DNA of 17,967 bases from JBDROU01 sp043809745 [NCBI: bacterium]. Lineage in GTDB: Bacteria > Elusimicrobiota > JBDRMW01. A model generated the notes under the pieces. It saw only the letters and a list, made by a program, of their open reading frames with translations, was not told the origin of the DNA and made no database searches. The position numbers and the translations under genes were made by a program. This document shows, piece after piece, positions 210 to 17,611 of the stretch (positions are counted from its first letter, which is position 1; each line of letters begins with the position of its first letter). The DNA is taken from positions 1 through 17,967 of the forward strand of contig JBDROU010000021.1 in the NCBI GenBank assembly GCA_043809745.1, read 5' to 3'.

Positions 210-271
210 AAAGAACTTAAAATTGGAACTTATGCGTAATTATTTTGTTACATAATAAAAGGGTAAATATA

Positions 272-3200
272 ATGAGATTAACAGCTAAAACTACTACTAA
301 TAGTTTAGTTAGTGTTATCTTTATCGCCGCGCTTACCTTTATAGGGTGGGTAACGCCCGCGTTTGGTGATACGATCCTACATAATTTATATAGCGATAGC
401 GGCATAATACAGGATTCTGAAGTTTTTGTATGGGAGAATGATAATAATTCTGCAGATGATTTTGCAGAGGTTAGTGATGCATCTGCACCTGAAGGGGATA
501 AGGTATTTCAGTTTAATGTAAATTCCGCTTGGGGTGGCTGGGGTATATTCTTTAAGAACTCAACAATAGATCTTTCAGGAGCAGCATCAGGTAATTTGGT
601 TTTCTGGGTAAAAACACCTGTAAAATTAAAGATAGAGATGCAGGAAACCGGAGTATCAGGAGCAAAAAGTGCTGTATATCTTAATTCCTATGGCTGGAAC
701 GGGACCAATACCTGGCAGGAAATTACGATTCCCTTGCAGGATTTTCTAAATAAACCGCTTAACTCGACAGCGATTTACAGTCCTTTTATGATAACGGTTG
801 AGCAAACCGCATCGTTTTCTATTGATCATGTTCGTATTACAGATGTAGGTGATCCAGTAGATCCTCCAGTAGATCCCCCAGTAGAGCCTCCTGTAGAGCC
901 TCCTGTAGATACTTTAACACCTGTATTACCATATAATCTTTATAGTGATGACGGAATCCCTCAAGATTCTGAAGTTTATGTGTGGGAAGCAGATGGTGAT
1001 TCTTTAGGAGATTTTGCAGAAGTCAGCGATCCGTCTGCTCCTGAAGGTGATAAGGTTCATAGATTTAATGTAGATTCCGCCTGGGGCGGTTGGGGTTTAT
1101 TTTTTTTAGATAAAAAACTAAATCTTTCAGAGTCAGCATCAGGCAATTTGGTTTTTTGGGTAAAAACACCTGTAAAATTAAAGATAGAGATGCAGGAAAA
1201 CGGAGCATCAGGAACGAAAAGTGCCGTATATCTTGATTCTTATGGCTGGGACGGAACTGATAACTGGCAGGAAATAACAATTCCTTTACAGGATTTTCTG
1301 AACAAACCGCTTGACGCGACAACCATTTATAGTCCTTTTATGATATCGGTTGAGCAAACCGCATCATTTTCTATAGATCATGTTCGTATTACAGACGGTA
1401 GTGATACGGTAGATCCTCCCGTAGATCCTGTAGACCCCGTGGATCCGGTAGTTCCCATAATTCCTCCGATTATACCGGAATCAGGTCAATCATTTCTATA
1501 TAACATATATACTGACAACGGAATCCCTCAAGGTTCTGATGTTTTTGTATGGGAAGCAGATGGGGATTCTTCAGGAGATTTTGCGGAAGTCAGTGATCCA
1601 TCTGCGCCTGAAGGTAATAAGGTTCATAGATTTAATGTTGATTCTGCCTGGGGCGGTTGGGGAGTATTCTATGCAACTGATCCGGATAATCAAACCGTAG
1701 ACTTTTCAAGTTATGTTACTGGGAATTTGATATTTTGGATAAAAACGCCGGTCAAACTCAAAATAGAGATGCAGGAAACAGGAGCATCCGGAACAAAAAG
1801 CACCGTATATCTTGATTCTTATGATTGGGATGGGACCAATACCTGGCAGGAAATTAAGATTCCCTTACAGGATTTTCTAAATAAACCGCTTGACGCAACA
1901 GCTATATACAGTCCTTTTATGATATCTGCGGAACAAACAGCAGAATTTTCTGTAGATTATGTGCGTATAGTAAGCCCGCCGGTTCATGATGGCGCCACTA
2001 AAGTCGAAATTCAAGATAACAAGTTTTTTGTTAACGGCCAGCCTTTTAAAGTAAAAGGAGTGAATACTAATTTCACGCCGGTTGGAAAAAATCCGTTATA
2101 TTATGATTGGACTGTTGATAAGAGAAATTATGAGATTGACATTGAACTTCTTAAAGCTATTGGCGCTAACGTTGTTCGTATCTATAACATACCTTCGAAT
2201 CAAGAAGCGCTTCTAAAGTTCTATGAACAAGGTATTTATATGATTCTTACTTTCCCTGTTGGCGAAGATGATATTAATAACAAACCAGACATGATATACA
2301 GATACTTAAGTTTTGTAAGCGATTGGATGAATCATCCCGCTGTTCTCGCGTGGTGTATAGGCAATGAGGTTGATTATTGGTACGGTTACAATGATGCACA
2401 AAAAGCTGAATGGTTTTCGCTGTTAAACGAGTGTGCCAAACAAAGTCATCTGTTTGAAACTTCAGCAGGGATTACGCCGCATCCTGTAACAACCGCTAAT
2501 TCAGGTATTGAAGAAATCGGAGTTCACGCTCTTAAATCTGATGATGTGAATATGCCGAATCTTGATTTCTGGTCTATTCAAACATATCGCGGAAGCGGTT
2601 TTGGGAATCTCTTTGATGATTATAAATCCCGTTCGTCAAAGCCGTTACTTATAAGCGAGTTCGGGTGTGATGCCTGGGACGGCACTAAGGGAGTTGAAGA
2701 TCAGCTAACTCAGAATCAATTTATAGCAAGTCAGTGGAATGAAATAGCAGCTCAGGTATCATCAGATACTAACCCTGGAGGGATCTGTATGGGGGGTATA
2801 CTCTTCCAGTGGAGGGACGGGTGGTTCAAGTATGAACCGGGCGCTCTGGATGAACATAATACTGAACAAAGTTGGATGAATTATTATTATCCGGATCCGT
2901 ATATGAATGAGGAGTGGTGGGGTATTATAGGTATAAATGCTGTAGATCCAACCTCAAGGGATTTAAGGGAAGCTTTTTATACTTTGATGGGCACAGATTA
3001 TTGGAGGGATGAACCGTTTACTAAAAAACCGAAAGTAACACTCAATTATTGGATAGCAGGATCGGATACTAAATTAACCGCTGATTTTGAAGGTATATTT
3101 TCTAAAGTCAGAAGCAGGTTTAACCCTATTCCTATTTCGCAAGATTCTGTGCAGACCGAAGGAGTTATATTTAATCAGTTAATTATCGGCGCAAGTGTTG

Positions 3201-4144
3201 TTGACGGAGGTTCAATTAATACTGGTGAGGTAGCGATCCCCCGCTATGAGCTGGTGCCGCCGGCTGGTGTTGATAAGCCCGGGATCAGTTATTTTATAGA
3301 GGTGACAGATGAGTTTAATAGAAAAACATATTTTGGGAAAAGCGGGGAACAAAAGACATACCCTGAATTTGCTGAAATGATATTTATTCCTATCTCACTA
3401 AGCTTAACAAAAACCGTATCCTCCTCCGGCGGTACTTTAATTTTTCCCGACGGTTCTACTAAAGACGGGGAAATCACATTTATTATTCCGGAAGGAGCTG
3501 TGGACGGGAATGTAGAAATTATGGTGGAGATGCTGGATCCGACCAGCCTGCACAAAGGCCCTTCTTTCGCAAAAAGCGAATACCCGATAATGGCTTATAG
3601 ATTATCGCCTAAAGGTTTAAAGTTCAAGAAACCTATAACAGTAAGTCTTCTTTACTTTGATGGTGATCAACCGCTTGCGCAGAAGCATCCTGTAGAGCCG
3701 GTCGCATATAACGAGGAGCAATACGGTGTTTTATTATTAAATGAGTCAAAAAATGAGTGGCAGTTATTGGAGCGCAACGAAATAACTGTAGATAAAGAAA
3801 ATAATTTGGTTACTTTTCAAACAGATCACTTTTCAATTTTTGGGGTATTCCCGCTGGGCGACATTACCACATTAACATCAGTATCATACAAACCTACCCA
3901 GAAAATAATTACGCCAAACGGCGACGGATACAATGATTTCTTGCTGTTCAATAATTTGGAAGGAAAGGGTGTAGAAATAAAAATATTTAATATCGCCGGA
4001 AAAAAAATACGCTCGATTAACCATGAGCCATATCAATGGGACGGCAAGGATGATGATGGAAACTTTGCTGAGATAGGTGTATACATTTATCAGTTTAAGG
4101 TTGAAGGCAAAAGAATAAACGGGATGATAGGTGTCGCCAGATAA
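272..4144 (+). CDS. Secreted multi-modular glycoside hydrolase with T9SS-like C-terminal domain
   Basis: This is a 1290-residue exported enzyme predicted to cleave or transfer glycans. The ATG at 272 is chosen because AAAGGG (258-263) lies 8 bases before it; a TTG at 245 in the same frame lacks this. A signal peptide covers residues 1-32 (basic N-region, hydrophobic core, cleavage after PAFG). Three near-identical beta-sandwich modules of about 155 residues follow, separated by Pro/Asp/Glu-rich linkers. They resemble CBM11/CBM30-like galactose-binding folds (WQEITIPLQDF). A TIM barrel spans about 578-940, with FFVNGQPFKVKGVN at its start, GNEV carrying the likely acid/base Glu699, and LLISEFG carrying the likely nucleophile Glu796, as in clan GH-A (GH2-, GH5- or GH72-like). 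A ZU5-like domain covers about 1049-1190. The C-terminus (about 1205-1290) has TPNGDGYND, WDGKDDDG and a final basic strand, as in CHU_C/T9SS type B sorting domains. The substrate is unknown; a beta-glucan is only a guess. Confidence 0.85.
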   Translation: MRLTAKTTTNSLVSVIFIAALTFIGWVTPAFGDTILHNLYSDSGIIQDSEVFVWENDNNSADDFAEVSDASAPEGDKVFQFNVNSAWGGWGIFFKNSTIDLSGAASGNLVFWVKTPVKLKIEMQETGVSGAKSAVYLNSYGWNGTNTWQEITIPLQDFLNKPLNSTAIYSPFMITVEQTASFSIDHVRITDVGDPVDPPVDPPVEPPVEPPVDTLTPVLPYNLYSDDGIPQDSEVYVWEADGDSLGDFAEVSDPSAPEGDKVHRFNVDSAWGGWGLFFLDKKLNLSESASGNLVFWVKTPVKLKIEMQENGASGTKSAVYLDSYGWDGTDNWQEITIPLQDFLNKPLDATTIYSPFMISVEQTASFSIDHVRITDGSDTVDPPVDPVDPVDPVVPIIPPIIPESGQSFLYNIYTDNGIPQGSDVFVWEADGDSSGDFAEVSDPSAPEGNKVHRFNVDSAWGGWGVFYATDPDNQTVDFSSYVTGNLIFWIKTPVKLKIEMQETGASGTKSTVYLDSYDWDGTNTWQEIKIPLQDFLNKPLDATAIYSPFMISAEQTAEFSVDYVRIVSPPVHDGATKVEIQDNKFFVNGQPFKVKGVNTNFTPVGKNPLYYDWTVDKRNYEIDIELLKAIGANVVRIYNIPSNQEALLKFYEQGIYMILTFPVGEDDINNKPDMIYRYLSFVSDWMNHPAVLAWCIGNEVDYWYGYNDAQKAEWFSLLNECAKQSHLFETSAGITPHPVTTANSGIEEIGVHALKSDDVNMPNLDFWSIQTYRGSGFGNLFDDYKSRSSKPLLISEFGCDAWDGTKGVEDQLTQNQFIASQWNEIAAQVSSDTNPGGICMGGILFQWRDGWFKYEPGALDEHNTEQSWMNYYYPDPYMNEEWWGIIGINAVDPTSRDLREAFYTLMGTDYWRDEPFTKKPKVTLNYWIAGSDTKLTADFEGIFSKVRSRFNPIPISQDSVQTEGVIFNQLIIGASVVDGGSINTGEVAIPRYELVPPAGVDKPGISYFIEVTDEFNRKTYFGKSGEQKTYPEFAEMIFIPISLSLTKTVSSSGGTLIFPDGSTKDGEITFIIPEGAVDGNVEIMVEMLDPTSLHKGPSFAKSEYPIMAYRLSPKGLKFKKPITVSLLYFDGDQPLAQKHPVEPVAYNEEQYGVLLLNESKNEWQLLERNEITVDKENNLVTFQTDHFSIFGVFPLGDITTLTSVSYKPTQKIITPNGDGYNDFLLFNNLEGKGVEIKIFNIAGKKIRSINHEPYQWDGKDDDGNFAEIGVYIYQFKVEGKRINGMIGVAR
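383..841 (+). repeat. Carbohydrate-binding-like module, copy 1 of 3
   Basis: This first 153-residue repeat unit of the glycoside hydrolase begins at NLYSD and ends at DHVRIT. Shared landmarks with the other copies are FAEVSD, SAWGGWG, FWVKTPVKLKIEMQE, WQEITIPLQDFLNKPL and IYSPFMI. It is followed by a linker (about 849-910) built of VDPP/VEPP units, encoded by a roughly 12-base tandem repeat. Confidence 0.8.
935..1393 (+). repeat. Carbohydrate-binding-like module, copy 2 of 3
   Basis: This second 153-residue unit has the same length and landmark motifs as copy 1. Many nucleotide stretches are identical or nearly so; for example, the segments encoding FWVKTPVKLKIEMQE in the two copies are almost the same. 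A DPVDPV-type linker follows before copy 3. Confidence 0.8.
1502..1972 (+). repeat. Carbohydrate-binding-like module, copy 3 of 3
   Basis: This third unit has 157 residues. It carries a four-residue longer loop around ATDPDNQTVDFSSY and is slightly more diverged (FWIKTPVKLK, DYVRIV) than copies 1 and 2 are from each other. It leads directly into the catalytic barrel through a short SPPVHDGA segment, with no Pro-rich linker. Confidence 0.8.
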
Positions 4145-4185
4145 AGAAGGCGCTGATGCAAAAAGAGGATGTAAGGAAAAATAAA

Positions 4186-5127
4186 ATGGCACGAATAATT
4201 AAAACATCACTTTTAATGCTTATATTTTTAGCGCTTGTTTCTGTTCACAGCAAGGCGGCGTTTAAAGATACCGGTTGGGGAGCCAGGCCCTCTAGTATGG
4301 GTAATGCATTCGGCGCTGTATCGGACGACGTGAACGCCGTATTTTATAATCCGGCGGGGATAGCCCAGCTGGATCAAACAGAGACCCACTTTATGTATGC
4401 GCGCAGATTCACCGGGTTAGATGATGTAAATCTGGGCTTAAATTATTTTGCGTTCGGCAAGCCGGTATCAAAATATGAAGCATGGGCTTTCAGCTGGGCG
4501 CGTTTCAGCGCTAAATCAATTTATAACGAGGATACGGTTGCGCTCTCATACTCAAGAATAGTAAGTAAAATTGAAGAAGCAGCGGGTGTTAAGGTATTTG
4601 TTGGCGGAAATATAAAATTATTGAGAAATGAATTTAAGCTGGATGATCAGTTAAGAGGGGACCCGGTGTTTGAAAAAGGCAAGCATGCTGAGGCATTTGC
4701 GGTTGATTTGGGATTGCTGCTTAAGTGGGAAAGAGAGGCGGTAGGATTATCTGTGAAAACATTGAATGAGCCTAATATAGGTTTAAAGGAGACAGAAAGA
4801 ATACCAAGGGAATACAGATTAGCTGTAAATCATATATTTGGAGATATAGGTTTGATTCAGGATGCGCATACTTCACTAGATCTCACACTTAGGGATGAAG
4901 ATTATAATGTTCATTTAGGATGGGAAAATTACTTTTTGGATAAGACCTTAAGTTTCCGGTGCGGTGGAAGCGCGCATGAATTATCAGTAGGGTTCGGCAG
5001 TTATCTCTCATTGGGAGAAGCTTTTGGCATTCAACTCGATTATGCTTTCCTTTGGCCGCTGGAATTAGAGGATACAACAGGATCACATAGGATAAGTCTG
5101 GTTACCAGATTTGGCCAGAAAAAATAA
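4186..5127 (+). CDS. PorV/UPF0164-family outer-membrane beta-barrel protein
   Basis: This is a predicted outer-membrane barrel of 313 residues. The ATG at 4186 has TAAGGA (4172-4177) 8 bases upstream and gives a compact signal peptide (MARIIKTSLLM..., cleavage near SKA). An in-frame ATG at 4156, also with a usable AAGAAGG site, would add ten charged residues and is the alternative start. After cleavage comes the family hallmark: GWGARPSSMGNAFGAV, then SDDVNAVFYNPAGIAQL. The rest alternates short polar and aromatic strands as a barrel would. In T9SS, PorV binds cargo C-terminal domains and carries them to the attachment complex. The gene directly upstream (41 bases away) encodes a protein with such a domain, so the two probably form one functional unit. 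The family also contains members with no proven secretion role, so the shuttle function is inference. Confidence 0.75.
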   Translation: MARIIKTSLLMLIFLALVSVHSKAAFKDTGWGARPSSMGNAFGAVSDDVNAVFYNPAGIAQLDQTETHFMYARRFTGLDDVNLGLNYFAFGKPVSKYEAWAFSWARFSAKSIYNEDTVALSYSRIVSKIEEAAGVKVFVGGNIKLLRNEFKLDDQLRGDPVFEKGKHAEAFAVDLGLLLKWEREAVGLSVKTLNEPNIGLKETERIPREYRLAVNHIFGDIGLIQDAHTSLDLTLRDEDYNVHLGWENYFLDKTLSFRCGGSAHELSVGFGSYLSLGEAFGIQLDYAFLWPLELEDTTGSHRISLVTRFGQKK

Positions 5128-8431: not shown

Positions 8432-10045
<1,614 letters not shown>

Positions 10046-10056
<11 letters not shown>

Positions 10057-10579
10057 GCAGATATGCAATTTATGCGTAAAGACCGTGATTGATATTATAT
10101 CATTCAGGAGTTTTGTAGCTGGGTGGGGGTTGTTCTGGAGAAGCTTTATTTTGACATTTCTTTTTTATGTCGGTATCGTGTTCGTAATAGTAAAAATATT
10201 TAATTACATAGGTTTTACGATAAATTTAAGGGCAATTGTTTTTCTTTTAGTGACTCTTGTTATGACGCTTGTTTATATTAATCTTTTGAATTGGGCAATT
10301 AAAAATTCAGGTAAAAAATATCAATTGGATCTCGGACTTAATAAATGGTTTTGGTGGTCTATGTTTTGGAGATGGTCTCTGATTATGGTTGTTGTTACAG
10401 CAGTCGTTAATTTTATCGGAAAACTTTTTATTTTACTAATACCCTTTTTTCTTTTTGACATATTAATAATAGCAGCGGTTACTATAGCTCAGCTTTATTT
10501 ACTAATTTCAGTTTATGGATGGACGTTTTTATTTTTGGTCAACAAGTTACAAAAGGAAAAGGTTTTAAGCTCGTTATAA
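10046..10579 (+). CDS. Four-helix integral membrane protein of unknown function
   Basis: I do not recognise this 177-residue protein. The ATG at 10046 has GGAGGA (10029-10034) 11 bases upstream, inside the 3' end of the ftsB-like gene; a longer TTG-started frame from 9956 is rejected because it would run through most of that gene's second half. A short N-terminal region with two cysteines (Cys7, Cys10) precedes hydrophobic segments near 33-49, 63-82, 105-124 and 127-165, the last perhaps two helices. A striking aromatic cluster, WFWWSMFWRW, lies at 101-110. The C-terminus is short and basic. The 11-base overlap with ftsB suggests coupled translation, so a link to the cell envelope or division is possible but is inferred only from position. 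Confidence 0.7.
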
Positions 10580-10601
10580 TACAAGTTATAAGGAGGATTC
10601 A

Positions 10602-10790
10602 CTGGCTAAAAAATCTAGATTAATTAGCTACAAGGCTGTTATCAGGGCAGGCAGGAAAGAATACCATAATCATTATCTTGCGTATAATCTGTTTGTTATT
10701 ATTGTTTTTTTGCTGATTATTGGCGCTTTCTGCCTTTTATGGCAAAATCCTGAACTTGTAAGCAAACTCCTAACCAACCTATTTAAATAG
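10602..10790 (+). CDS. Small single-pass membrane protein, apparent CTG start
   Basis: This is a 62-residue frame that ordinary start-codon rules miss. A perfect AGGAGG (10591-10596) sits 5 bases before CTG at 10602, which opens a frame reading (M)AKKSRLISYKAVIRAG and onward. There is no in-frame ATG, GTG or TTG between the upstream stop (10566-10568) and residues deep in the membrane helix. The protein has a strongly basic N-terminus (K3, K4, R6, K11, R15, R18, K19), one hydrophobic helix at about 30-47 and a short amphipathic tail ending LTNLFK. It lies 22 bases after the four-helix protein gene, and its TAG lies inside the left arm of a terminator hairpin, so it is the last gene of the operon. 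No family is recognised. A sequencing error changing ATG to CTG is the main alternative. Confidence 0.6.
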   Translation: MAKKSRLISYKAVIRAGRKEYHNHYLAYNLFVIIVFLLIIGAFCLLWQNPELVSKLLTNLFK

Positions 10791-10813
10791 GGACAACCCC
10801 CTATTTAATTTTT
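10783..10813 (+). terminator. Intrinsic terminator of the pgm-eno-ftsB operon
   Basis: TTAAATAGGG (10783-10792) pairs perfectly with CCCTATTTAA (10799-10808) across a six-base loop, giving a 10-bp stem followed by five T (10809-10813). The stop codon of the CTG-started ORF lies in the left arm. Only three G-C pairs support the stem, so termination may be partial. Confidence 0.6.
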
Positions 10814-10824
10814 GAGGTTTTAAT

Positions 10825-10914
10825 ATGAAAATCAAAATTCTGTCTATTCCTGTTATTGTGTCAGCTATTTTCTTATTCACGTTTATTCTCCTCGTTTTTG
10901 ACTTAAAAATATAA
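10825..10914 (+). CDS. Possible 29-residue hydrophobic microprotein
   Basis: An ATG at 10825 with GAGG (10814-10817) 7 bases upstream opens a 29-codon frame ending in TAA. The product starts MKIKILSIPVIVSAIF: two lysines, then an almost unbroken hydrophobic stretch, then DLKI. This is the shape of a single-helix membrane microprotein or an isolated signal anchor. It lies directly after the operon terminator, with no clear promoter of its own, so expression would need read-through. A chance ORF in AT-rich DNA remains quite possible. Confidence 0.35.
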   Translation: MKIKILSIPVIVSAIFLFTFILLVFDLKI

Positions 10915-10978
10915 TATTTGAATCATAGCTCAACTCCTAAAAAATGTTGAGTAAAATATTTGTTAGCATTGCGGGCAT

Positions 10979-11004
10979 ATTACGCGGTATAATGACCGCG
11001 TGAT
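10979..11004. promoter_or_regulatory. Dyad with central -10 box upstream of the PPC gene
   Basis: ACGCGGT (10982-10988) and ACCGCGT (10995-11001) are a perfect inverted repeat around a six-base centre. Outer pairs extend it to 10 bp per arm with one G-T wobble. TATAAT occupies 10988-10993 across the left arm and centre. The best -35 candidate is TTAGCA (10963-10968) at 19 bases, which is poor. This looks like a promoter with a repressor site over its -10 box; it could instead be an RNA hairpin in a longer leader. Confidence 0.4.
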
Positions 11005-11080
11005 TAATAAGTATATTTTAGGGTCCGTACTATTGGCAACTGCAAGGAAAGAAATAACAATATATTAAAGGATATCAATT

Positions 11081-11634: not shown

Positions 11635-14600
11635 ATGAATCAAAAAACCATTAACGTACAACAATTCCCAGAGGTGCGTGTTGTAGAAGCCTCGGCAGGA
11701 TCAGGCAAGACACATGCACTAACGGAACACTTTATTAAACTAATCATAAATAAAAACTCCTCTTCACAGGATATCAAGAATGTACTAGCTATAACCTTTA
11801 CCAGGCAAGCAGCTCGTGAGATGAAGGAACGTATATTGGGTTCACTCAAAAAGATCGCTCTCAATAAACCCGCAGATTTTGAAGAGGTTAATAGAGTACT
11901 GCAAGCATTGGTTGTTGGAAAAAAGGAAGCCCAATCAAAAGCTCATCAATTAGTGGAGTATATTATAAGAAATTTTAACTATTTTCAGGTGCAGACCATT
12001 GATAGTTTTATAAATATGATACTTTCAGGGTGCTCCTACAAACTAAAGCTTTCTTCGCAATTTGAGATTAAGGATGAGTACAGTGAATATCTTTCCTACA
12101 GTCTGGACAGGATCATAGATAAAGCAATGACTGATAATAGTATAAGAGATAAATTTAGTGAGTTCATTAAACAGTACTTGTTTTTAGAAAACAAGTTAGG
12201 CTGGTCCCCTAGGAAGGACATAATGAATATAATGAGTTCTCTATTATATAACGTTACTGTTTACGGTAAGGGATTCAAAAAAATAGAAGTAACCTATAAA
12301 GACATTTTAGATAGTAAATTAAAAGTTATTAAGATGCTTTCAGTCTTAAGAAAAGATGCCCCTGAAGGAACGAATAAAACTTTATTAAATGTTTTAGATA
12401 CATTTCTTACAGTTAATACTAAATATTTCGATATAAATGATTTCGCTTCCAGGAAAACACTTTTGTCTAAGGATTTTCCAATAAAGAAAGGTTATGATTT
12501 GACTCCGAACATTAAAAGCCTTTGGTGCAAAATACAAAAATCTATGTCAACTATTGCCGGGCTAGAAGCACGGTTTGTATTTAATTGTTATCTGGATATA
12601 TTTAACATGGTATATGATATGTTCAGGGAGTTTGCGCTTAAAGATAACGCGCTTTTTCTTGGAGAACTGAATGCGCAAGCAAAAACCCTGATAGCGCAGA
12701 ATAATTTAACAGTTCCGGAATTATACCTGAGGCTTGCCAATCGCTTTAAGCATTATCTTATTGATGAGTTTCAGGACACAAGTGCCTTGAGATGGCGGAA
12801 TCTATCCGAGATGGTTACTGACGGGTTATCTTCTGGGGGGTCGCTTTTTTATGTTGGAGATAGAAAACAAGCGATATTCCGTTTTACCGGCGGGGACATA
12901 TCGCTTTTTGAGAAAGTTCAAGATGAGTTAAAAGCATTTAACGTAAAATCAGATTCGTTAACAACTAATTACCGAAGTCAGAAAGAAATAGTTGAATTTA
13001 ATAATAGAGTATTCTCCAAAGAAAATTTGGAAAGATTCCTTTCTGATATGAAACCTGCAGATGACGAACATCTAAAAATTCTTAGTACTGAAGAAATTAG
13101 AGAAATACTACACGTGTTTTCAGATTCGAGGCAAGAGCATAAAAGCGATAAAGCCGGAGGTTATGTTTGTGTGAATAATGTTGAGTATGTTGACAAAGAA
13201 GATAGAGAAGAAAGAATAGCAGAGGAGCTTTTTAAGCTTTTAGGAGCAATAAAAAAGAGGTTTAACTTAAATGATATTGCTTTTCTATGTAGATCTAATA
13301 ACGAGGTTGAACTTGTAAGCGGATGGCTTATTGAGCACGGAATTGCGGTTGAATCTGAAAAGACCTTAAACTTAAAAAACAACATACATATAATTGAGCT
13401 GATATCATTTCTTAAATTTCTTAATTCGCCCATAGATAATCTTGCTTTTGCTTCATTCATATTAGGAGATATTTTCCGGAAAGCCAGCGGTTTAGAAAAG
13501 CAAGAAGTGGAGAAATTTCTTTTTTTAATAAAAAATAAGTTTAATAAGTCTAAGAACCATTATGTCTACCGAGAGTTCAGGCTTCAATTTCCGGAAATTT
13601 GGGAAGATTATTTTGAAGAGTTTTTTAAGAGTGTCGGATTCATGAATCTTTATGAATTTGTTGTGGATATAATGAGTAAATTTAGGGTGCAGGCTAATTT
13701 CGGGCAGCATCAGGGATTTTTTATGCATCTGTTGGAAGTTATTAAGAGTTTGGAAGATGAGTACCATAGTTTAGCGGATTTTCTAGAGTATTATGAAAAT
13801 CTGAAAGGTGATAAGCTATTCGTAAACTCATCTAACGAAGAGGCTGTAAGGGTAATGAGTATACACAAATCTAAAGGACTTGAATTTGGAGCGGTAGTAA
13901 TTCCTTTTTTCGAACTGGAATTCAGAGATTTAAGTTCAAACAATAACAAGGACAAGGTTTCATATGTTGTGTATCCAAGCAATGAGGATTTATTATTGTT
14001 AAGACTTGATTCAAAATATGCTTTGCTTTCTGATTCAGTGAAAAAGGCATATAAAGAAGAATATGTTAAAACGCTGATAGATGAATTGGATATTATTTAT
14101 GTTGCTTGTACGCGGGCGATAAATGAACTCTATATTTTCGTTCCTTTTAAGCAAAAAGGGAGCACAAATCTTGCAAAGAGCTTAATACCTGAGGATTCTT
14201 ACCTCAAGGGAACAAACTCCCAATATATATCAAAACCTGAAGATTCAACTGAATCAGTCAAGATCCCGATTAGTGGTTACAGAAGCTGGAAGGATATGCT
14301 GAAAGATGAGTTTGATGATATTAGTAGAATACGTAATAGAAAGCAGATATTAGGAGGAGAAATAATCCATAAAATATTTTCTTTTATTGGGAATTTAAAT
14401 AACCAAAATATAAAGGAAGTATTGGCAAAAGCTAAAGATCAAACAGAAATATTTTTCCCGTTTGTTAGTGATTATTCGCATTATGTTTCAGTAATTGAGC
14501 AACTGGTAAAGTCTGAATTAGCGAAAAACTTCTTTTTAGTTGAAAAAGGTAATGTTTTCAATGAGATTGAATTAGTGGATGGCAAAGGATTTACAAAGAG

Positions 14601-14787
14601 GATAGACAGATTAATTGTCAAAGAAGATGAGATATTGGTGATAGATTACAAAACAAGGGGAGAGCTAATACTAAAATACAGAGAACAACTTAAGGAATAC
14701 ATGAAAGTTATAGGAGAAATATACCCTAAAAAGCGCATAAGAGGTCTAATTATATTTGTAGAGGAAGTGCGAGTTGAAGAAATCTGA
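11635..14787 (+). CDS. addA: AddA-type helicase-nuclease subunit (UvrD-like helicase, PD-(D/E)XK nuclease)
   Basis: This 1050-residue subunit of the AddAB complex unwinds and resects double-strand DNA breaks for recombination. All superfamily 1 motifs are visible: Walker A EASAGSGKT at 18-26, ITFTRQAAREMKERI (Ia), LIDEFQDTS with Asp377-Glu378 (II), YVGDRKQAIFRF (III), LTTNYRS (IV), VRVMSIHKSKGLEF (V) and YVACTRA with Arg827 (VI). The C-terminal nuclease is intact: IDR with Asp991, VIDYKT with Asp1004 and Lys1006, then Gln1018 and Tyr1022. No Shine-Dalgarno site precedes the ATG at 11635, but the Walker A motif begins only 18 residues in, so the start cannot be much later. The 3' end overlaps addB by 14 bases. 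RecB of RecBCD is the alternative name, but the AddB-type neighbour and the absence of recC or recD here favour AddA. Confidence 0.9.
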   Translation: MNQKTINVQQFPEVRVVEASAGSGKTHALTEHFIKLIINKNSSSQDIKNVLAITFTRQAAREMKERILGSLKKIALNKPADFEEVNRVLQALVVGKKEAQSKAHQLVEYIIRNFNYFQVQTIDSFINMILSGCSYKLKLSSQFEIKDEYSEYLSYSLDRIIDKAMTDNSIRDKFSEFIKQYLFLENKLGWSPRKDIMNIMSSLLYNVTVYGKGFKKIEVTYKDILDSKLKVIKMLSVLRKDAPEGTNKTLLNVLDTFLTVNTKYFDINDFASRKTLLSKDFPIKKGYDLTPNIKSLWCKIQKSMSTIAGLEARFVFNCYLDIFNMVYDMFREFALKDNALFLGELNAQAKTLIAQNNLTVPELYLRLANRFKHYLIDEFQDTSALRWRNLSEMVTDGLSSGGSLFYVGDRKQAIFRFTGGDISLFEKVQDELKAFNVKSDSLTTNYRSQKEIVEFNNRVFSKENLERFLSDMKPADDEHLKILSTEEIREILHVFSDSRQEHKSDKAGGYVCVNNVEYVDKEDREERIAEELFKLLGAIKKRFNLNDIAFLCRSNNEVELVSGWLIEHGIAVESEKTLNLKNNIHIIELISFLKFLNSPIDNLAFASFILGDIFRKASGLEKQEVEKFLFLIKNKFNKSKNHYVYREFRLQFPEIWEDYFEEFFKSVGFMNLYEFVVDIMSKFRVQANFGQHQGFFMHLLEVIKSLEDEYHSLADFLEYYENLKGDKLFVNSSNEEAVRVMSIHKSKGLEFGAVVIPFFELEFRDLSSNNNKDKVSYVVYPSNEDLLLLRLDSKYALLSDSVKKAYKEEYVKTLIDELDIIYVACTRAINELYIFVPFKQKGSTNLAKSLIPEDSYLKGTNSQYISKPEDSTESVKIPISGYRSWKDMLKDEFDDISRIRNRKQILGGEIIHKIFSFIGNLNNQNIKEVLAKAKDQTEIFFPFVSDYSHYVSVIEQLVKSELAKNFFLVEKGNVFNEIELVDGKGFTKRIDRLIVKEDEILVIDYKTRGELILKYREQLKEYMKVIGEIYPKKRIRGLIIFVEEVRVEEI

Positions 14788-17611
14788 AATAAACATAAAA
14801 ACATATAGTTTTAGTGAGAATATAATCTTTAAAATAGCTGATTATTTAGAAGAAACGTTCCTAGATAAAGGGTTTGATTTAAGCAGGTGCGCTATAGTAT
14901 TTGGAGGCAGGAGACCTTCTTTATTCTTAAAAAAGGAACTATCTAAAAGGATAGGAAAAAGTTATCTTTCACCTAATTTCTTCTCTATTGATGATTTCTT
15001 AAGTTTTATTATTGAAAAAAAAGGAATTTATAGAAATCTGTCAGATTTAGATACCGCGTTCATTATTTATAACATTACTAAAAATTATGCACCTGAGATG
15101 CTTATTGGCAGGGAGGAATTCTCTAATTTTTTACCTTGGGCCAATGAGATCGCTGCTTTTATTGATGAACTTGACTTAGAGGATGTTTCATCAGAATCTC
15201 TTAAAAACGTTCAGAACTTTGCTCATATAGGTTATGAGGTTCCGGAGTCTATAAATAAGATGCTGCAGAATATAGTTTCAATAAGGGAAGCCTACCATGA
15301 AGCGCTTAAGTCTAAAAAGGCTTTATCCCGGGGTCTGAAGTATCTTGAGGCTTCAAAACACATATCGGAAGTTAAATTCAGTGAATTCGATAAAATACTA
15401 TTTTGCAATCTGTTTTATCTGCATAAGACAGAAGAGGTAATAATCAAGGAGCTTTTCGAAAAAGATATTGCTGCTCTTTTTTTTCAGAGCGATAAATCTG
15501 ACTGGAATGCTTTTAATCGAATCGAAAATGTACTTAATTGTAATATCAAGCCGCAGGAAGCAGTTAAGCCTAAATATGAGTTGAATTTATTTAGGGGGTT
15601 TGACTCGCATTCCCAGGTCTGTACTGTAAGGGAAGTAATAAAAAAAGTAAATGATCTTAATAATACAGTAATTCTTCTTTCGGACAGTAATAATCTTGTG
15701 CCTTTACTGTCCGAAATGTCCGCAAATGTGGATGATTATAATGTTTCTATCGGATACCCATTGAGAAGAAGTACAATCTTTAATTTGTTTATCTCAATAT
15801 TTAAGGCACAGTTTACAAGAAAAAATGATAAATATTATACAAAGGATTATTTAAAGCTATTACTGCATCCGCTGGTTAAGAACTTAAGCATTTCTTCGAC
15901 ACCTGCAAATACAAGAATTCTAGTGCATAAGATTGAAGAGATTTTATTAGGTATTGAAGAATCGAAATTAAGTAAAAATACATTTGTCGAACTTAAAGAA
16001 ATAGAATCATGCCAAGAACTTTATTCAATTACATCAGAGATGTTGGCGAGTATGGGCATAAAAATAAGCTTAAACAATTTAGTGGATTTACTCAAGGAAG
16101 TGCACTCGCTAGCCTTTTATAATTGGGAGTATATAACGGATTTCAAAGGATTCTCTGTTGCGCTGGAAAGCTTACTTGGGATATTAGTTACCAAGGGTTC
16201 TATAGATAAGTATTCGCTCAACTCGAAAGTAATTGAAAAAATATACTCGATTAAAGACGAATTAGAAAATTTAGAATTTAAAGACAACCCGTTTAATAAA
16301 TATGAAATATTTAGGATTTTTGAAGACAAACTGAAAAAATTAACAATCTCATTTTCAGGTTCCCCGCTTAAAGGATTGCAGATACTGGGTCTTTTTGAAA
16401 CAAGAGCATTAAGTTTTGATAATGTAATAATTATGGATGCCAATGAATCAGTGCTCCCAAAATTAAGGCTTTATGAACCATTGATACCGAGGCAGATAAT
16501 GGTTAATTTAGGTCTTAACAGGCTTGAACAAGAGGAGGAAACACAAAGATATCATTTTATGAGGCTTATCGGTTCGGCGAAAAATGTTTATTGTGTATAT
16601 GATGATAGTCCACAAAAGCAAAGAAGCCGTTTTTTAGAAGAGATTATCTGGCAGAAAGAAAAAGAAGGAATAGATACAAAAATATATTCCCACAATAAAG
16701 CCAAATTTAATGTTGAAGTGCTAACGAAAACCAATAATGTTAAGAAAAATAATGAAACATTGGAGTTTTTGAAGAATTTTAGGTTTTCTCCGACAAGCAT
16801 TAATTCATATTTAGAATGCCCTTTACAGTTCTATTACAGGTATGTGCTTGGTTTGGAGAAAAAAGAGGAGGTATATGATGAACCTCAGGCAAATGAGATA
16901 GGGATATATGTCCACGATTTGCTCGATGTTACTTACAGAAAGTTTTTAGATAAAAGATTGGCAATTAATGAACATTTTAAGGAATCGTTTTTTAAGGAGT
17001 TTGAGAGCAAATTTAACGAAACCATAGGAAAGAGCATAGGTTCTGACGGGTTTATGGTAAAGGAGATTTTAAGGGTAAGGCTGGAAAGATTTCTTTATAA
17101 TGAATCTAATAGAACGGTCAAAAAGGTTTTATATCTTGAAAACGCTTCGTTGATTAAGAATATGCCCTTTCGGGATTCTTCAGTGCAGTTTAAGTGCGTT
17201 GTGGACAGGGTTGATATACTTGATGATGACTCGATGCTTGTACTGGATTATAAAACAGGTTCAATCCCAAAACCCATATCAAAATTAGATAAATTGGAAG
17301 CTTTGGAATTCAGCAGAAAAACAATAAAAGATACAATTCATTCATTCCAACTGCCGGTGTATTATTATGCTGTAAAGAATAAGCATCAAAATACTCCGTT
17401 GAATGCGGCATTCTATGATATAAGGAATCCGGAGAAGTTTTCCTACTTTGTAAAACCCGGAAAGAATATCGATACAGACAAAGCGGTGCAGATTTGCATG
17501 AAAGCTTTGGAATTTATATTAGAGGAAATACTTGATTTAAGCAAAGTTTTTGAACCGGACCGCGAAGGTCAGAAGTGTTTGTACTGTCCGTATGCGGGTA
17601 TGTGCCAGTAA
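14774..17611 (+). CDS. addB: AddB-type nuclease subunit with Fe-S cysteines
   Basis: This 945-residue partner of AddA carries the second nuclease, which cuts the other strand. The TTG at 14774 is chosen because GAGGAAG (14761-14767) lies 6 bases upstream, inside addA, giving a 14-base overlap and probable coupling. The N-terminal helicase-like half has lost its ATP site: the Walker A position reads FGGRRPSLFLKKEL with no GKT, as in many AddB-like proteins outside Bacillus. The C-terminal nuclease is complete, with SPTSINSYLECPLQFYYRYV, VDRVD (Asp811), VLDYKTG (Asp825, Lys827) and FQLPVYYYA (Gln859). Four cysteines fit the AddB iron-sulfur cluster that holds the nuclease domain together: Cys682 before it, then Cys935, Cys938 and Cys944 at the very C-terminus (CLYCPYAGMC). 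The gene ends the recognisable coding content of the window. Confidence 0.88.
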   Translation: MKKSEINIKTYSFSENIIFKIADYLEETFLDKGFDLSRCAIVFGGRRPSLFLKKELSKRIGKSYLSPNFFSIDDFLSFIIEKKGIYRNLSDLDTAFIIYNITKNYAPEMLIGREEFSNFLPWANEIAAFIDELDLEDVSSESLKNVQNFAHIGYEVPESINKMLQNIVSIREAYHEALKSKKALSRGLKYLEASKHISEVKFSEFDKILFCNLFYLHKTEEVIIKELFEKDIAALFFQSDKSDWNAFNRIENVLNCNIKPQEAVKPKYELNLFRGFDSHSQVCTVREVIKKVNDLNNTVILLSDSNNLVPLLSEMSANVDDYNVSIGYPLRRSTIFNLFISIFKAQFTRKNDKYYTKDYLKLLLHPLVKNLSISSTPANTRILVHKIEEILLGIEESKLSKNTFVELKEIESCQELYSITSEMLASMGIKISLNNLVDLLKEVHSLAFYNWEYITDFKGFSVALESLLGILVTKGSIDKYSLNSKVIEKIYSIKDELENLEFKDNPFNKYEIFRIFEDKLKKLTISFSGSPLKGLQILGLFETRALSFDNVIIMDANESVLPKLRLYEPLIPRQIMVNLGLNRLEQEEETQRYHFMRLIGSAKNVYCVYDDSPQKQRSRFLEEIIWQKEKEGIDTKIYSHNKAKFNVEVLTKTNNVKKNNETLEFLKNFRFSPTSINSYLECPLQFYYRYVLGLEKKEEVYDEPQANEIGIYVHDLLDVTYRKFLDKRLAINEHFKESFFKEFESKFNETIGKSIGSDGFMVKEILRVRLERFLYNESNRTVKKVLYLENASLIKNMPFRDSSVQFKCVVDRVDILDDDSMLVLDYKTGSIPKPISKLDKLEALEFSRKTIKDTIHSFQLPVYYYAVKNKHQNTPLNAAFYDIRNPEKFSYFVKPGKNIDTDKAVQICMKALEFILEEILDLSKVFEPDREGQKCLYCPYAGMCQ

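What the first reader, a model, noticed from the sequence alone, without database searches (positions are those of the whole stretch)
10591..10790. Small membrane protein apparently initiated at CTG
A perfect AGGAGG stands 5 bases before CTG. The frame that follows is basic, then hydrophobic, and ends in the operon terminator, and no ATG, GTG or TTG is available upstream in that frame. Natural CTG initiation is rare in bacteria, and standard gene callers would skip this gene.
Basis: seen in the sequence. Interest (0 to 1): 0.6.

Follow-up and report, generated by a model that had tools for sequence, protein, structure and literature searches.

The report
Small membrane protein starting at CTG
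A short gene for a one-helix membrane protein, last in an operon of an uncultured bacterium, appears to begin with the rare start codon CTG, and its ribosome-binding site is folded into a hairpin that translation of the gene before it would open.

Summary
In detail: AAGGAGG lies 5 bases before CTG (10602), the frame is open for 62 codons with no ATG, GTG or TTG upstream, and its stop lies in a terminator stem. The product's hydrophobicity was matched by none of 400 random stop-free frames in either of two null sets, but codon periodicity does not separate it from wrong-frame stretches (19 of 44 score as high). New here: a predicted hairpin (10570-10595, z -5.25) pairs the Shine-Dalgarno sequence (SD), and its 5' arm holds the stop codon of the preceding membrane-protein gene, which suggests translational coupling. 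Best reading: last gene of an eno-ftsB-like operon, a single-pass membrane protein made at a low, coupled rate from a natural CTG. No relative was found in 384 sampled genomes of the nearest phylum; the preceding protein has none either, so conservation could not be tested. No reads are held, so an error or variant at 10602 stays open. 800 kb of one relative shows no enrichment of CTG behind SDs. Rare CTG starts behind strong SDs are known (FIB rep, PMC11983097), so this is a new member of a known kind.

The parts
8447..9751 (+). enolase (eno)
   Evidence: Pfam Enolase_N and Enolase_C; up to 70% identical to genomes of the phylum of an Omnitrophota record
9748..10056 (+). FtsB/DivIC-like septum formation initiator, overlapping eno by 4 bases
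   Evidence: Pfam DivIC 3.6e-16; a tblastn match in 23 of the 30 enolase loci L102-L131
10046..10579 (+). P7: 177-residue multi-pass membrane protein of unknown family, overlapping the ftsB-like gene
   Evidence: ORF; no Pfam family reaching its cut-off; hydrophobic segments
10570..10595 (+). predicted hairpin: 3' arm holds most of the Shine-Dalgarno sequence, 5' arm holds the P7 stop codon (10577-10579)
   Evidence: -9.1 kcal/mol, z -5.25, 1 of 200 shuffles as stable; five of seven SD bases paired in 10540-10640
10590..10596 (+). Shine-Dalgarno sequence AAGGAGG
   Evidence: sequence; only copy in the window
10602..10604 (+). CTG, proposed start codon
   Evidence: only NTG or ATN start-like codon 4-11 bases after the SD; no ATG/GTG/TTG upstream in frame
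10602..10790 (+). 62-codon gene for a single-pass membrane protein with a basic N-terminus
   Evidence: single-sequence AlphaFold2 model: helices 5-48 and 50-61, mean pLDDT 84, pTM 0.52
10783..10808 (+). intrinsic-terminator-like stem-loop, T tract following, containing the stop codon of the CTG gene

Best explanation
The 62-codon frame is a real gene, the last of an eno - ftsB-like - P7 operon. It makes a small membrane protein with a basic N-terminus, probably inside the cell, and one helix across the membrane. Initiation is at CTG, made possible by a full 7-base SD at good spacing. In free mRNA the SD is paired in a hairpin. Ribosomes that read P7 to its stop, which lies in the hairpin's 5' arm, would open it and could start the small gene at once. 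The weak codon would keep the rate low, so the protein would be made as a small fixed fraction of P7, perhaps as its membrane partner. Shown: sequence, frame, SD. Predicted by computation: hairpin, terminator, membrane helix. Inferred: CTG use, coupling, low dose, topology, partnership with P7.
For: SD, spacing and frame. CTG is the only start-like codon (NTG, ATT, ATA, ATC) 4-11 bases after the SD. The codons GCT AAA AAA follow, an ordinary xAKK N-terminus. Hydrophobicity matched by 0 of 400 random stop-free frames in each of two null sets; N-terminal charge by 1.3% and 6.2%; both together by 0 of 400 in each. Second-order periodic coding score 4.0, inside the range of 162 pieces of the window's genes (12% score as low) and above all 324 off-frame pieces, which however contain stops. 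Hairpin z -5.25. SD-region accessibility 0.22, lowest of the 9 starts tested; three genes with uncertain starts (245, 5178, 6679) were left out. Holding the P7 end open frees the SD. Precedents: FIB rep starts at CTG with GGAGG, with CTG-to-CTC loss of function and earlier N-terminal analysis (PMC11983097, passages); Staphylococcus aureus cvfC1, 61 residues, starts at AUU behind an extended SD with about 10% of the AUG yield in poor medium (PMC13009471, passages).
Against: No credible relative of the 62 residues in 384 sampled genomes, plasmids or viral contigs, and no Pfam or NCBIfam match. The coding score is reached by 19 of 44 wrong-frame stop-free stretches of the window and by 9 to 12% of random stop-free frames. 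Of 16 plus-strand GGAGG sites in the window, 5 have a CTG 4-11 bases on, so the pairing of the two is not rare. No enrichment of CTG behind SD motifs in 800 kb of a relative. Counted over GGAGG alone, the SD is not unusually hidden: 0.42, 15th lowest of 27 sites. A longer stretch around the hairpin folds no better than shuffles (z -0.78). With the P7 end held open, the CTG's T and G stay largely paired.
Confidence: 0.66

Rival explanations
1. The gene is real, but the base at 10602 is an assembly or sequencing error, or a minority variant; the population starts at ATG, GTG or TTG.
For: No genome is held for the window and no reads are available. Only the first base of the codon is unusual; everything else is an ordinary start.
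Against: One specific base would have to be wrong. CTG starts are rare but not absent: 20 of nearly 85,000 annotated genes, as quoted in PMC11983097, probably more often than a good assembly errs at one given base (inference).
Confidence: 0.14
2. The frame is the C-terminal part of P7, separated by a one-base error or by programmed frameshifting; the SD is a coincidence.
For: The frame is open back to 10569, overlapping the last 8 coding bases of P7, and both products are hydrophobic.
Against: A 7-base SD, unique in the window, at 5 bases from an NTG would be chance; P7 ends with its own stop 22 bases before CTG.
Confidence: 0.07
3. The frame is a decaying or spurious gene: the start codon was lost by mutation, or never was one, and nothing useful is made.
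For: No relatives found; coding score not decisive; CTG near GGAGG is common in the window.
Against: Frame intact to a stop placed in the terminator; SD and hairpin intact; hydrophobicity beyond all 400 random frames in each null set.
Confidence: 0.1

Closest known systems
rep gene of the FIB replicon of F-like plasmids (CTG start)
   Same: CTG start, GGAGG-type ribosome-binding site, low expression as the likely point (PMC11983097, passages)
   Different: replication protein on plasmids, start proven by mutation; here a small membrane protein in an operon with housekeeping genes, start inferred
Staphylococcus aureus cvfC1 (AUU start, 61 residues)
   Same: small protein, non-canonical start behind a strong SD, about 10% of AUG output in poor medium (PMC13009471, passages)
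   Different: AUU, not CTG; an extended SD; ribosome-profiling evidence
DUF5989 (PF19451) small membrane proteins
   Same: about 50 residues with one hydrophobic stretch; present in an Omnitrophota relative (L003 4261-4419)
   Different: no alignment with the 62 residues; no Pfam match; no SxtJ match among the window proteins scanned
Orphan Rhs C-terminal toxin of Salmonella Typhimurium (CTG start)
   Same: a bacterial product reported to start at CTG at low level (PMC7043789, passages)
   Different: an orphan rhs gene product; unrelated protein

Membership tests
bacterial genes with a natural CTG start | CTG at SD distance with no ATG, GTG or TTG available upstream | tested here: met
bacterial genes with a natural CTG start | N-terminus or initiation at the CTG shown by experiment | not testable with these tools
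   needs ribosome profiling, N-terminal analysis or a reporter
bacterial genes with a natural CTG start | start codon conserved or replaced by other starts in orthologues | tested here: inconclusive
   no orthologue among 384 sampled genomes; P7 has none there either
translationally coupled gene pairs | SD of the second gene occluded by structure that reading of the first gene would open | tested here: inconclusive
   predicted hairpin and its opening fit; the GGAGG-only count (15th lowest of 27) and the longer fold (z -0.78) do not single it out
translationally coupled gene pairs | expression of the second gene lost when the first stops early | not testable with these tools
   reporter experiment
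DUF5989 | match to the Pfam model PF19451 | tested here: not met
   no match listed up to E 10; no alignment with a true member

The most novel reading that the evidence does not exclude
The operon uses CTG as a deliberate dose setter in a coupled pair: a hairpin makes the small protein depend on P7 termination, and CTG fixes its ratio at a few per cent of P7. P7 itself may also start at a CTG (10040, 6 bases after GGAGG 10029-10033) rather than at ATG 10046, so that two genes of one operon would use CTG.
Probability: 0.12. Interest if true: 0.6.

Novelty: new member of a known kind. Interest (0 to 1): 0.38.

Why it matters
Usual gene callers accept only ATG, GTG and TTG (recalled), so small genes with other starts go unseen. 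If true, this is a CTG-started small membrane gene in an uncultured lineage, with a testable coupling hairpin. It is one case and does not point to a start-codon habit in the relative surveyed.

Tried and rejected
Whole-genome search and file of the window's own genome: none held. Orthologue search with the 62 residues: 106 of 384 genomes match at E up to 1, best 5.9e-4 for one genome, which is about chance over 384; the three best matches contain stop codons. Of the 20 loci fetched there, 3 (L083, L085, L099) reached E 0.01 in a local tblastn; only L085 was read. Its stretch lies in a longer open frame (190 codons) whose neighbours, by eye, are unlike those here. The other 19 were not read. 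Two further genomes reached by locus gave one match at E 0.219.

Orthologue search with P7: 6 of 384 at E up to 0.01, best 0.00198, read as chance and not followed. A local tblastn at E 0.01 against the 131 loci then held found no P7; two later loci gave one 21-residue match at E 0.65. Viral contigs: no confirmed relative of either protein. Closer relatives by enolase: two orders (19 and 4 genomes) and a class sample (384 genomes), searched with strict limits, gave nothing above 70%.

Membership of DUF5989 was considered and dropped. Dropped as too weak: two Rfam matches far below gathering score, one PDB chain at E 0.21, one PHROG at E 0.06, one Pfam match of P7 at E 0.16. Structure models came from single sequences (P7 mean pLDDT 76, pTM 0.32) and were not searched by fold, since helical models of this kind match widely. 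Paper searches that gave nothing used here: (listings only).

Full report
What was checked. All of this is in the sequence. AAGGAGG is at 10590-10596, ATTCA follows, and CTG is at 10602-10604. The frame runs from 10569 to the TAG at 10788-10790. No ATG, GTG or TTG lies between the upstream stop and CTG, and the first one after it leaves only 26 residues. The stop lies in the 5' arm of a 10-pair stem at 10783-10808 followed by TTTTT; 10775-10825 folds at -15.1 kcal/mol, z -3.87.

Setting. Upstream are enolase (8447-9751), an FtsB/DivIC-like gene (9748-10056) and P7 (10046-10579), a 177-residue membrane protein with no family match above cut-off; downstream lie a PCC-domain gene, a UvrD-type gene and an AddB-like gene. 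No genome is held for the window. An ftsB-like match was found in 23 of the 30 enolase loci L102-L131, so the first two genes are often neighbours there. The window is therefore probably, not certainly, from an Omnitrophota bacterium without a close relative among the genomes searched.

Is the frame a gene? For: against 400 random stop-free frames of the same length in each of two Markov nulls (one built on 10580-11080, which includes the frame, one on the whole window), none reached its hydrophobicity (19-residue mean 2.81), 1.3% and 6.2% reached its N-terminal charge, and none had both. A second-order periodic score gives 4.0, within the range of 162 pieces of the window's genes, of which 12% score as low; all 324 off-frame pieces score lower, but these contain stops. 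Against: the same score is reached by 9 to 12% of the random stop-free frames and by 19 of 44 wrong-frame stop-free stretches of the window. The coding score alone does not decide; the membrane-protein character and the start signals carry the case.

Is CTG the start? It is the only start-like codon 4-11 bases after the SD, and GCT AAA AAA follow, an ordinary start context. AGGAGG-N4..9-CTG with 62 open codons came up once in 400 Markov sequences of window length on one strand. In 800 kb of one relative (G217, both strands), AGGAGG preceded 90 canonical start codons with 30 or more open codons and, among 40 orphan codons leading frames of 50 or more, no CTG. GGAGG preceded 210 canonical starts and 120 orphan codons, one of them CTG, through masked bases. 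AAGGAG preceded 103 canonical starts and 56 orphan codons, one of them CTG (64 codons). CTG is thus not enriched in that relative, and such frames are few. In the window itself the looser motif is weak evidence: 5 of 16 plus-strand GGAGG sites have a CTG 4-11 bases on, and GGAGG precedes one antisense CTG frame of 124 codons. What sets 10602 apart is the full 7-base SD, the intergenic place and the absence of any other start.

A hairpin over the SD. The stretch 10570-10595 folds as CTC.TTATAAT / GTTATAA.GAG at -9.1 kcal/mol; z is -5.25, and 1 of 200 shuffles is as stable. Of 30-base stretches sampled along the window, 0.8% fold as well. The region was chosen after it was seen in a longer fold (where the whole 81 bases have z -0.78), so the z-score is generous. 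The 3' arm holds most of the SD, and the 5' arm holds the P7 stop codon 10577-10579. In 10540-10640 five of the seven SD bases are paired nearly always; with 10562-10589 held open, as a terminating ribosome would do, they are 43 to 99% free, though the T and G of CTG stay largely paired. Accessibility of the SD region is the lowest of nine starts tested (0.22; three genes with uncertain starts left out). Counted over GGAGG alone it is 0.42, 15th lowest of 27 sites, so the SD as such is not unusually hidden. The layout fits a coupled pair, in which the second gene is read chiefly by ribosomes that finish the first, but it is a prediction.

Mechanism and function. The 62-residue product would have a basic inner N-terminus, one membrane helix and, by eye, a short amphipathic end; a single-sequence model shows helices 5-48 and 50-61, mean pLDDT 84. 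Since it follows P7, would be coupled to it and is also a membrane protein, a role as a low-dose partner of P7 is the most likely guess. That is inference. A link with division through the ftsB-like gene is possible but has no evidence beyond the operon.

Precedents. The FIB rep gene of F-like plasmids starts at CTG behind GGAGG; changing CTG to CTC abolished replication, and the paper quotes 20 CTG starts in nearly 85,000 annotated genes (PMC11983097; passages). An orphan Rhs toxin of Salmonella is reported to be made at low level from a CTG (PMC7043789; passages). In S. aureus a 61-residue protein starts at AUU behind an extended SD, with about 10% of the AUG yield in poor medium (PMC13009471; passages). 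sORFdb reports CTG among the non-canonical starts of small genes over 20 residues (PMC11796252; passages). The case is therefore a new member of a known kind.

What is not settled. No credible relative of the 62 residues was found in 384 genomes of the phylum, a sample of a larger group, and none of P7, so absence is not evidence against the gene.

Noticed in passing
10825-10914: A 29-residue hydrophobic frame with an ATG start and GAGG at 10814-10817 stands just after the terminator; part of its SD can pair with AACCU before the terminator stem. No family match.
   Followed up: partly
10029-10048: P7 has GGAGG at 10029-10033 with a CTG at 10040, spacing 6, and the ATG at 10046, spacing 12; it too could start at CTG.
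   Followed up: no
245-5127: A large protein with glycoside-hydrolase and carbohydrate-binding domains and a CHU_C type IX secretion signal stands beside a PorP/SprF-like gene, in a window placed nearest Omnitrophota.
   Followed up: no
11635-17611: Adjacent UvrD-type and AddB-like (PDDEXK) genes; only 4 of 40 near genomes have a relative of the first at E 1e-20 or better, best 44%.
   Followed up: partly
L003 1978-4419: In an Omnitrophota relative, SxtJ and DUF5989 genes follow a long gene that looks like a carbamoyltransferase (this last name recalled, not tested); one gene lies between them and eno.
   Followed up: no
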